A stretch of DNA of 64,000 nt, taken from contig NZ_AP022842.1 in assembly GCF_011398925.1 (NCBI RefSeq), forward strand, positions 670,001 through 734,000. The letters are read 5' to 3'. A model generated the notes under the pieces. The model saw only the letters and a program-made list of their open reading frames with translations, did no database searches and had not been told where the DNA came from. A program made the position numbers and the translations under genes. Origin of the DNA: Bacillus sp. KH172YL63 (lineage in GTDB: Bacteria > Bacillota > Bacilli > Bacillales > Bacillaceae_B). Shown here piece after piece: positions 17,423-20,074 of this stretch. Each line of letters starts with the position of its first letter. The first letter of the stretch is position 1.

Positions 17423-17506
17423 ATGGGTGAATGAAAAATGTGGGAACCGCCTACTCATTTTGGAATAAAATAACAAGATAGTTTTTGGATAAAGGAATGA
17501 GTATAG

Positions 17507-20023
17507 GTGAGAAAAAAGAAAAACATGTCTCCCGGTAAAATCATTGACTGCAAACTTGACATCCCACCACGCGGATGCTCTGGAATTTTTCCTTATGATG
17601 GATGTGAAGATCCGACACTCCAACTAGATGATATCGATTCGATCAGCTGTGAAGGGGTGATCAGCGGCAGGGTGCTGTGTGATTATCAGCCCCTTCAAGG
17701 TGTGACGGTCACCCTTGCGTCATCGTTCCCCGGTCTCACTTTTGAAAATGCCCAGCCGGTGACTGACAGTACGGGAAGGTTTCAAACAAGAGTAACAGTG
17801 AATCCAGGTACGCCGATTACGCCTAATGTGATTGTTTCGGCGACGGCAGTTGTAATTGGTAAAACGATACGGGATTCTATTTCAATCAGAGTGGATTGTA
17901 TTAAATGTAAGAATCCCGTGCTTATATTGGATTCCATCCCTTGTCCTGTCAAATGCAAGGGCGCGCAGATCAGTGGAAGGCTCACATGTGATGGAATGGC
18001 GATTGGTGGTGCTGCTATTAGCTTTATTATAGAGTCGGCTTCAAATCGAGTCGTCATCACGCCAAATCCTGCCATTACCACAAATGACGGCAGATACACG
18101 GCAACCCTGGTCCCATTTCCGGATATAAATGAAACCATTACGATCACAGCCACGACAAAGATTGGGGGTAAACAGGTATCCTCTGAAATAAGAGAAGTGA
18201 ATGTGCATTGCGTCAAATGTAAAAATCCTTCCATACAATTGAAAAAAATAAAAAAAATCGATTGTCGGGCCATTGTATCAGGTAAAGTGACGTGTGATGG
18301 GGTTCCTCAGCCAAATGTCCCTGTCACACTATCCGGTTCTTCCATACTGGCGTTTGACCCTATAAATCCTGTTACGGATGAAAATGGATTTTTCTCTTCT
18401 TCTATAACAGTAGAGGAGGGCACACCTTTTCAAAAGGCTGTCTATACAGCGACAGTGAAAATCGATGGGAAATTGATCAGTGCCACAGATACCGTGAAAG
18501 CAGGCTGTGAAAAATGCAGAAAGCCAAAATTAACATTAGAAGTTCCCTGTGAAACCGTCACATGCAAGGGGGCGAAATTGACAGGTAGATTAACGTGCGA
18601 CGGTGTGCCTGTTCAAGGTAAAAGTGTTTCATTCATTATTTCGGCTTCCTCTCCAGATATAGTGGAATTACAGCCCAATCCAGCGATAACCGACCAAAAC
18701 GGAAATTATGTTACAAAGCTCGACGTATCCCAGGGTGTGATGGAAACCATTTCTATCAAGGCGGTAGCGACTATTGATGGAGCCCCTGTTATTGCGTTTG
18801 CAAAAGTTACGATTGATTGTCGGTGTGAAAATCCCACCTTCCATATGAGAAAAATAAAAAAACTTGATTGTAAGGGGATCGTGTCTGGTTGCCTGACTTG
18901 CGATGGAAAGCCTATATCATACCAAACAGTATCCTTCTCCAGCCCTGTTTTAACATTTAAACCACGGGCAGTCGAGACGGATGAAAACGGTGAATTTTCA
19001 ACCCTTGCCTTTGTACCACCGCATCCGCCCTTTAGGGAAGTTCCTTATACTGTGTCAGCAAAGGTAGAAGGTAAGCCTATTTCTGAGGTGTTCTTCGTAT
19101 ATGCAGGTTGTCAGCGATGCGATCATCCTAAGTTGACGTTGTGTGTTCCAGACTGTATTGATTGCGAGGGTGCGAAAATTACAGGTGAATTCTCATGTAA
19201 CGGCCGGCCTGTAGGAAACGCAAAGATCGAATTGAAAGTATCCCCCAAGGTAGCGACGATCAATCCTGAAAAGGTGATAACCAATGAACATGGTGAATAT
19301 GAAGCATGGATCCATCCTGATGGGGATGTTAATGAAGATGTATTGATTCAAGCAACCGCACGCTTAGAAAAAAAGGAGATCGTTTCTGTAAATAAAATGA
19401 CAAAGATTCATTGCATTTGCAAACATCCTGTGGTGGAACTGGATTCTGTCACAGAAATTATTTGTTGTGGAAGGATCGGAGGGACCGTCCTCTGTGACGG
19501 AATCCCGGTCCCGGATATTGATATTGAGCTTGACAGTCCGCTTCTTGAATTTGAAAAGAAAATGGTAACGACGAATGAACAGGGCAGGTTTTCAAGTGAA
19601 GTCACAGTGCCGGAAGATACAGACTTTCAGGAAATCCCTTATACTGCGACAGCCATTGTTTCGGGAGAAGTGATTTCTGCAAAGGGCTTTGTGTACGGAG
19701 GGTGTCTTCTATGCGAGGATCCTGACATATCACTACGCGTTCCGTTGTGCATCGACTGCAAAGGGGCAACGATCACTGGTAAAGTAATGTGTGATGATAT
19801 CCCCCTTGAAGGAGTGAAAGTCTTCTTTGAAGTGATGGAGAAAGATTTGAAAAAAATCATCCAGCCAAACCCTGCGGTAACAAATGCATCCGGCAAATAT
19901 TCGGCGAGAATCACCTCTGTCCACGGAATGGATCACTGTCTCACCCTCAGGGCGGGAATACTTTGGGGAGGCAGGAAGATTTACACCAAACCGTTTTATA
20001 CAATCATTGAATGTACGTGTTAA
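17507..20023 (+). CDS. Large cysteine-rich tandem-repeat protein with eight Ig-like modules
   Basis: 838 residues with no signal peptide and no membrane segment. After ~30 residues the protein is eight modules of about 100 residues, each opening with CxxC(K/E)xP or C-x-C and then a C-x-G-x-(I/V)-S/T-G-x-L-x-C-D/N-G core. The modules alternate between two types: A (modules 1, 3, 5, 7; TDENGxFSS, YTATxxVDGK) and B (modules 2, 4, 6, 8; LxVPC, CKGAxITG, QPNPAIT, GxYxA). The strand pattern resembles bacterial Ig-like or carboxypeptidase regulatory-like domains. A GTG start with AAAGGA ten bases upstream is used; ATG 17525 lacks a site. It sits alone with terminators on both sides, between chaA (yfkE) and yfkD, which are neighbours in B. 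subtilis. Function unknown; a disulfide-linked or spore-surface role is speculation. Confidence 0.88.
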   Translation: MRKKKNMSPGKIIDCKLDIPPRGCSGIFPYDGCEDPTLQLDDIDSISCEGVISGRVLCDYQPLQGVTVTLASSFPGLTFENAQPVTDSTGRFQTRVTVNPGTPITPNVIVSATAVVIGKTIRDSISIRVDCIKCKNPVLILDSIPCPVKCKGAQISGRLTCDGMAIGGAAISFIIESASNRVVITPNPAITTNDGRYTATLVPFPDINETITITATTKIGGKQVSSEIREVNVHCVKCKNPSIQLKKIKKIDCRAIVSGKVTCDGVPQPNVPVTLSGSSILAFDPINPVTDENGFFSSSITVEEGTPFQKAVYTATVKIDGKLISATDTVKAGCEKCRKPKLTLEVPCETVTCKGAKLTGRLTCDGVPVQGKSVSFIISASSPDIVELQPNPAITDQNGNYVTKLDVSQGVMETISIKAVATIDGAPVIAFAKVTIDCRCENPTFHMRKIKKLDCKGIVSGCLTCDGKPISYQTVSFSSPVLTFKPRAVETDENGEFSTLAFVPPHPPFREVPYTVSAKVEGKPISEVFFVYAGCQRCDHPKLTLCVPDCIDCEGAKITGEFSCNGRPVGNAKIELKVSPKVATINPEKVITNEHGEYEAWIHPDGDVNEDVLIQATARLEKKEIVSVNKMTKIHCICKHPVVELDSVTEIICCGRIGGTVLCDGIPVPDIDIELDSPLLEFEKKMVTTNEQGRFSSEVTVPEDTDFQEIPYTATAIVSGEVISAKGFVYGGCLLCEDPDISLRVPLCIDCKGATITGKVMCDDIPLEGVKVFFEVMEKDLKKIIQPNPAVTNASGKYSARITSVHGMDHCLTLRAGILWGGRKIYTKPFYTIIECTC

Positions 20024-20037
20024 CCACCAACACCTAA

Positions 20038-20074
20038 CAGCGGAATCCGATTATAGGAATCCGCTGTTTTTTTT
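20038..20074 (+). terminator. Terminator of the cysteine-repeat gene
   Basis: CAGCGGAATCC and GGAATCCGCTG form an 11-bp stem with one mismatch, followed by eight T. Confidence 0.9.

What the first reader, a model, noticed from the sequence alone, without database searches (positions are those of the whole stretch)
17507..20023. Alternating cysteine-rich Ig-like repeat protein without a signal peptide
Eight ~100-residue modules arranged as four A-B pairs, each with conserved CxxC and C-x-G...C-D-G cysteines. No secretion signal, no anchor, and flanked by terminators. It interrupts the yfkE-yfkD neighbourhood that is contiguous in B. subtilis, so it is an accessory insertion. The strict A-B alternation implies that the pair is the duplicated unit. 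A cysteine-dense cytosolic protein in Bacillus suggests a spore coat or crust component or a metal-binding scaffold, but neither is shown.
Basis: partly seen in the sequence, partly recalled or inferred. Interest (0 to 1): 0.75.

Follow-up and report, generated by a model that had tools for sequence, protein, structure and literature searches.

The report
Cysteine-stapled Ig-like spore-surface rod protein
A soil bacterium carries a gene for a long chain of cysteine-pinned immunoglobulin-like domains that is most likely made late in sporulation and built into the outer shell of its spores; relatives in other bacteria are fused to a known outer-coat protein.

Summary
Window 17507-20023 encodes an 838-residue, 43-cysteine protein of eight Ig-like modules in strict A-B alternation, without a recognisable signal peptide or anchor, between two terminators. 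A and B are predicted to share one fold (intimin/Big_1 type). Named relatives are mostly Rossellomorea.

Best reading: an outer spore-coat or exosporium rod made in the mother cell under SigK. (1) A SigK-type promoter pattern (AC-N15..17-MATANNNTR) lies upstream of 24 of 28 family loci against 32 of 405 other ORFs nearby; the pattern was widened after seeing the family, the strict form gives 6 of 28 against 5 of 405. (2) In other Bacillales the same modules are fused to the BMQ_0737 spore-coat domain (6 of 9 scanned); no Rossellomorea member scanned has it (0 of 7). (3) No export signal.

Four cysteines per module are nearly invariant over 281 modules. I infer two disulfides clamping both ends of each module; one lineage fits (joint loss of all four), four proteins with a degenerate neighbour module do not fit simply.

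"Accessory insertion" is not supported as stated: one relative keeps a relic, so loss has occurred. Alternation is not universal (ABAAABABA, ABAAB). Spore location and disulfides are inferred, not shown.

The parts
   Evidence: hairpin plus T run, -19.4 kcal/mol, z -5.65
17446..17472 (+). SigK-type promoter, AC-N16-AATAAAATA (the consensus first base of the -10, C, is A here)
   Evidence: conserved in orthologs and, as AC-N15..17-MATANNNTR, in 24 of 28 family loci; alone in the window it is not significant, 4 sites against 3.45 expected
17491..17496 (+). ribosome-binding site AAAGGA
   Evidence: read directly
17507..20023 (+). gene for the 838-residue Cys-rich Ig-like repeat protein
17507..17599 (+). 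N-terminal tail, residues 1-31, basic, then the C-K-L-D-I-P-P-R-G-C-S-G-I-F-P motif; disordered in the model
   Evidence: motif found in 21 of 21 family members chosen for it; pLDDT under 50 for residues 1-31
17600..17896 (+). module M1, type A
17897..18208 (+). module M2, type B
18209..18505 (+). module M3, type A
18506..18817 (+). module M4, type B
18818..19108 (+). module M5, type A
19109..19411 (+). module M6, type B
19412..19702 (+). module M7, type A
19703..20020 (+). module M8, type B, ends in C-T-C
20037..20073 (+). intrinsic terminator after the gene
   Evidence: hairpin plus T run, -18.9 kcal/mol, z -5.83

Best explanation
It is a structural protein of the outer spore layers (outer coat, crust or exosporium). 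It is transcribed late in the mother cell by SigK RNA polymerase, needs no secretion signal because the coat is assembled from the mother-cell cytosol, and forms a rod of eight Ig-like domains. The second Cys of each linker pairs with the Cys at the end of strand B of the following module, and the Cys at the start of strand B pairs with the first Cys of the next linker, so each module is clamped at both ends once the spore surface becomes oxidised. The N-terminal P-P-x-G-C-[PS]-G-I-F-P tail is a candidate docking peptide. Module number sets length. Shown here: the protein, its modules, a shared fold by prediction, a promoter-like sequence, no recognisable export signal, and fusion of such modules to a spore-coat domain in relatives. 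Inferred: SigK dependence, spore location, disulfide pairing, docking role.
For: SigK-type promoter: 24 of 28 family loci against 32 of 405 other ORFs of the same stretches; with C at the first -10 base 14 of 28 against 9 of 405; strict AC-N16-CATANNNTA 6 of 28 against 5 of 405. Collapsed by me to 17 groups of related loci, 13 and 10 are positive for the first two patterns (tested). The 16-nt spacing equals that of Bt bclA (CAC-N16-CATATGTTA), whose SigK dependence was shown by lacZ fusions (PMC4750369, passages). A sigK gene is present in this genome, 374.8 bits. Domain company: of nine related proteins from other loci scanned against NCBIfam, six carry NF052457 'BMQ_0737 family morphogenetic spore coat protein' above its cut-off (L066, L067, L068, L069, L072, L073) and three do not (L060, L063, L065); NCBI gives that name to P0039; the window-family module profile finds two or three modules in each of those six chains. 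BMQ_0737-GFP lies in the outer shell of B. megaterium spores and is exposed to antibody (PMC4656864, passages). No signal-peptide-like N-terminus among 38 members by hydropathy. Cys: 249, 279, 280 and 273 of 281 modules keep the four positions; module 4 of two short orthologs lacks all four while module 3 keeps its last Cys. The genome also encodes a CotZ-type coat protein and a BMQ_0737-type protein of its own.
Against: No expression, proteomic or imaging data. The window copy has A instead of C at the first -10 base, and about as many such sites are found in the window as chance gives. The widened pattern was chosen after seeing family sequences; the 28 loci are related; the 405 control ORFs (120 codons or more) are not all real genes. 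L043, L062, L066 and L068 lack the pattern; L064, dropped for having only 190 upstream bases, has a CATATGATA but no AC at the right distance. The window protein has neither the BMQ_0737 domain nor the C-terminal domain of its paralogs, and 0 of 6 Rossellomorea-type relatives scanned has the BMQ_0737 domain. Against the clamp: in P0003, P0004, P0006 and P0007 the last module lacks the aligned linker Cys but keeps the strand-B-end Cys (an extra Cys near strand B might replace it). Modules were counted only above 15 bits, which favours Cys-bearing ones.
Confidence: 0.76

Rival explanations
1. Same spore protein, but the four cysteines gathered at each module junction (CxxC of the linker, strand-B start of the module before, strand-B end of the module after) bind zinc rather than forming disulfides, giving a metal-stiffened rod.
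For: CxxC linkers; weak zinc-ribbon resemblance in relatives, Ribosomal_S27e E 0.0038 in P0017, 17.4 bits against a cut-off of 24.5, and a JGI name 'ribosomal protein S27E' for P0033. The last module of P0003, P0004, P0006 and P0007 keeps its strand-B-end Cys without the aligned linker Cys, which simple pairing inside the module does not predict. The cytosol where it is made is reducing (established knowledge).
Against: Two of three B-to-A linkers in the window are CxC. In two 4-module orthologs module 4 lost all four Cys while module 3 keeps its own, as pairing inside modules predicts; the two are close relatives and may be one event.
Confidence: 0.17
2. A secreted or wall-attached adhesin like invasin/intimin whose export signal is missed.
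For: Among the best structural matches are intimin and invasin domains; Big_1 by sequence.
Against: No signal-peptide-like N-terminus, LPxTG or membrane segment among 38 members by hydropathy and pattern; domain company is a spore-coat protein; SigK-type promoter pattern.
Confidence: 0.04
3. A cytosolic protein of vegetative cells with a non-structural role (metal buffering or redox storage).
For: No export signal; many Cys.
Against: Promoter pattern and domain company point to spores; a regular rod with near-invariant Cys per module looks structural (inference).
Confidence: 0.05

Closest known systems
BMQ_0737 family morphogenetic spore coat protein (NCBIfam NF052457)
   Same: In other Bacillales genera the BMQ_0737 domain is followed by two or three Cys-bracketed Ig-like modules that the window-family profile detects.
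   Different: The window protein has only modules and a short tail; NF052457 does not match it at E up to 10.
Intimin/invasin bacterial Ig-like domains (Pfam Big_1)
   Different: No signal peptide seen, four Cys per module, spore-forming Gram-positive relatives; no outer-membrane barrel domain listed by Pfam.
F-Anchor-3 of Clostridium aceticum (DUF4183, four DUF11 repeats, CsxA-like domain)
   Same: A predicted spore-surface anchor with zero to four repeat domains in different homologues (PMC11952670, a preprint, passages).
   Different: Other domains; Pfam lists neither DUF4183 nor DUF11 for the window protein.
BclA-type exosporium nap proteins
   Same: SigK promoter with 16-nt spacer (PMC4750369, passages); a short N-terminal peptide before a long stalk (PMC11952670, passages).
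   Different: Collagen stalk and C1q-like head there, Ig rod here; the exosporium leader TIGR03720 is not among the matches of the window protein.

Membership tests
Pfam Big_1 (PF02369) | whole-protein score above the gathering cut-off | tested here: met
   90.3 bits against 34.9, seven stretches. TTR-52, DUF6795, DUF4198 and CarboxypepD_reg also pass their cut-offs, so this is a superfamily-level statement.
BMQ_0737 family morphogenetic spore coat protein (NF052457) | match to the family domain | tested here: not met
   no match at E up to 10 in the window protein nor at E up to 1 in six close relatives; present in six of nine related proteins from other loci
SigK regulon | SigK-type promoter, -35 AC and -10 CATANNNTA with about 16-nt spacer | tested here: inconclusive
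   one mismatch (A for C) in the window copy and not significant alone; pattern strongly enriched across the family. The AC/CATANNNTA wording is recalled; Bt examples from PMC4750369.
SigK regulon | transcription lost in a sigK mutant | not testable with these tools
   needs experiment
spore-surface protein | found on or in the spore coat or exosporium | not testable with these tools
   needs imaging or proteomics
intimin/invasin adhesin | signal peptide and membrane anchor | tested here: not met
   hydropathy only
exosporium leader proteins (TIGR03720) | N-terminal leader match | tested here: inconclusive
   window protein not matched at E up to 10, but a 30-position model can be missed by filters; the genome search found none and its controls did not ring either
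disulfide-stapled Ig rod | two disulfides inside each module | tested here: inconclusive
   Cys conservation and one joint loss fit; last modules of four relatives do not fit simply; no coordinates or chemistry

The most novel reading that the evidence does not exclude
A further architecture of spore stalk or brush in Bacillales, besides collagen-like nap and ENA fibres: doubly disulfide-clamped Ig rods whose length is set by module number (4 to 10), hooked into the BMQ_0737/CotZ layer by a C-P-x-[IL]-F-P peptide and, in paralogs, capped by an unnamed 150-residue C-terminal domain.
Probability: 0.3. Interest if true: 0.75.

Novelty: new variant of a known kind. Interest (0 to 1): 0.52.

Why it matters
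Spore surfaces decide adhesion, resistance and germination, yet outside B. subtilis and the B. cereus group many of their outer proteins are unnamed (general knowledge). Here a family that sources call 'hypothetical', 'transthyretin-like' or 'ribosomal protein S27E' gets a testable assignment: SigK-made, spore-surface, disulfide-clamped rods of adjustable length. It would explain why a Cys-rich Ig repeat protein has no export signal, and offers a candidate for a very stable protein scaffold.

Tried and rejected
Whole-model Foldseek against PDB and viral models: the 50 rows shown for each are Ig or Big_1-like repeat arrays or uncharacterised proteins with TM at most 0.24. Sequence search of solved structures gave nothing below E 1. 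A genome-contig scan by back-translation found no relatives. The first upstream DNA alignment mixed orientations, because genome-search loci of minus-strand matches are not turned; redid it. A sigma-70 scan gave 7 sites against 9.1 in shuffles. The N-terminal motif profile against eight BMQ-type proteins: own-genome L074 scores 11.2, above all of 2000 shuffled decoys (best 9.5), but L066 scores 3.0, L068 and L069 -0.1, L072 and L073 below zero, L064 and L067 nothing; a loose pattern finds the motif near the domain end in 5 of 8 and anywhere in 51 of 2000 decoys. So this link is a lead only. A first run of that test failed by a script fault. A genome-wide DNA pattern for the motif gave 18 sites against 21 for the reversed control; only L074 and one long transporter-like frame (L082) hold it well inside a long frame. 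Fold of the paralogs' C-terminal domain: the searches were filled by the Ig domains, so it is untested. The BMQ_0737 paper (Manetsberger 2014) is not held; only its title in reference lists and citing passages were seen.

Literature absence: searches for Rossellomorea/spore/Ig-like, BMQ_0737, exosporium/immunoglobulin-like/cysteine-rich/spore coat, and spore coat/Ig-like domain/disulfide listed no paper on this protein by title or abstract start; most subscription papers are not held.

Full report
What is there. The ORF at 17507-20023 starts with GTG behind AAAGGA and encodes 838 residues with 43 Cys. Pfam finds Big_1 in seven stretches and several other beta-sandwich families. Eight modules follow a 31-residue basic tail that the model leaves disordered. 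They alternate 97-99 residue A modules and 101-106 residue B modules; in a tree of 66 modules from nine proteins A and B are split by a 100/100 branch, and the M1 modules of all nine proteins group together (100/99), so at least part of the array was laid down before these proteins diverged. Hairpins beside the gene fold as terminators. Against one ortholog dN/dS is about 0.15 at high dS.

Relatives. 19 proteins were found in the large protein set (a capped 7990 candidates scored), the named ones mostly Rossellomorea. In the genus set, 22 of 36 genomes match; comparing coordinates, 18 hold the gene next to the yfkD-like gene, three hold it elsewhere, one holds a relic. Lengths of 439, 652, about 840 and 1042 residues correspond to 4, 6, 8 and 10 modules; P0008 (ABAAABABA) and P0018 (ABAAB plus a C-terminal domain) break the alternation. 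Of 30 loci around the yfkD-like gene, three show the two flanking genes adjacent; the other 27 were occupied or not resolved by my pattern. One genome (G025) keeps the promoter pattern and a 45-codon open frame, 31 residues of which align with the protein's N-terminus, followed by a terminator-like sequence. Loss has therefore occurred at least once; for the other empty sites direction is undecided.

Spore link 1, promoter. Upstream of the orthologs at this site is a conserved AC-N16-AATAA(A/G)ATA or a close variant, and upstream of most paralogs AC-N15..17-CATANNNTR. Scanning 28 family loci and 405 other ORFs of the same stretches in the same way (ORFs with identical last 60 residues, and ORFs with fewer than about 240 upstream bases, dropped): 24 of 28 against 32 of 405; with C at the -10 start 14 of 28 against 9 of 405; strict form 6 of 28 against 5 of 405 (Fisher p 4e-20, 3e-13 and 2e-5, inflated by relatedness and by my choosing the wider pattern). 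Collapsed by hand to 17 groups, 13 and 10 are positive; counting L064, dropped for short upstream sequence, as negative makes 13 of 18. The window's own site alone is not significant. The spacing equals that of Bt bclA and bclB (PMC4750369, passages); B. subtilis SigK promoters have a 14-16 nt gap between a five-nucleotide -35 and a ten-nucleotide -10 element (PMC517825, passages). SigK is present in this genome.

Spore link 2, domain company. The paralogs' C-terminal domain occurs in 25 of 299 genomes drawn from the order (12 of 116 genera). Nine family proteins from those loci were scanned against NCBIfam; six carry the BMQ_0737 spore coat domain above cut-off (L066, L067, L068, L069, L072, L073), three do not (L060, L063, L065); L062, L064 and L071 were not scanned. 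In L066, L067, L072 and L073 the coat domain, Ig modules and C-terminal domain are one chain; in L069 and L068 the C-terminal domain lies on following frames. NCBI names a 77%-identical relative of L066 'BMQ_0737 family morphogenetic spore coat protein'. BMQ_0737 of B. megaterium is called crucial to the outermost spore layers (title of Manetsberger 2014, seen in reference lists) and its GFP fusion lies in the outer shell (PMC4656864, passages). The window protein and six close relatives lack the coat domain, and the window protein lacks the C-terminal domain.

Spore link 3, no export. In 38 proteins the most hydrophobic 12-residue stretch of the first 45 residues averages at most 1.96 on the Kyte-Doolittle scale, no 19-residue stretch exceeds 1.95, and none has LPxTG near its end. 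P0026 and P0033 start inside a module and P0004 and P0006 have extended starts, so their N-termini are less telling. Coat proteins are made in the mother-cell cytosol (established knowledge), so absence of a signal is expected.

Cysteines. Over 281 modules of 52 proteins, some near-identical and all above 15 bits, the four canonical positions are Cys in 249, 279, 280 and 273; of 32 modules without the first, 16 have a Cys within four residues. By the model's strand positions they sit at the two ends of strand B, at the end of the last strand and in the linker. Two 4-module orthologs lack all four in module 4 while module 3 keeps its own. In P0003, P0004, P0006 and P0007, where module 7 has decayed, the last module lacks the aligned linker Cys but keeps its strand-B-end Cys and has an extra Cys close to strand B; this does not fit the simple scheme. 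I infer linker-Cys2 to strand-B end and strand-B start to next-linker-Cys1 disulfides, formed after mother-cell lysis. Zinc at the junctions is the main rival.

Verdict. A spore outer-layer rod is the best explanation (0.76). It is an uncharacterised variant of known things: Ig-like repeats plus the SigK spore-coat programme.

Noticed in passing
L077 8660-14875 (-), own genome G000:C1 about 1982660-1988875: 2071-residue protein of many carboxypeptidase-regulatory-like repeats (my reading) with a partial BMQ_0737 domain at its C-terminus (49.9 bits, below the cut-off of 71) and CATAAACTA upstream; perhaps another giant spore-surface protein.
   Followed up: partly
L074 1411-2571 (+), own genome G000:C1:1629100: 386-residue BMQ_0737-type coat protein (73.7 bits) whose domain ends in a P-R-Q-C-P-G-L-F-P motif like the window protein's tail; genes that I read as glycosyltransferase and epimerase lie nearby.
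   Followed up: partly
P0018 residues 538-690; L060 6840-7313; L061 6968-7432: An about 150-residue Cys-containing beta-rich domain, alone or after Ig modules, in 25 of 299 Bacillales genomes; no Pfam or NCBIfam match covers it in P0018 or L060.
   Followed up: partly
L114 (G025), upstream of the yfkD-like gene: Relic of the window gene: promoter pattern and a 45-codon frame, then a terminator-like sequence.
   Followed up: yes
P0008 modules 3-5: Three very similar consecutive A modules, a recent single-module amplification that breaks the A-B alternation.
   Followed up: yes
P0003, P0004, P0006, P0007, region of module 7: Module 7 has decayed into an acidic, low-similarity stretch while module 8 is kept (P0003 and P0007 also).
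   Followed up: partly
L039 11171-12175 and L049 6527-7540: A gene near a paralog, outside the family by my pattern, also has a strict AC-N16-CATANNNTA upstream; possibly another late mother-cell gene.
   Followed up: no
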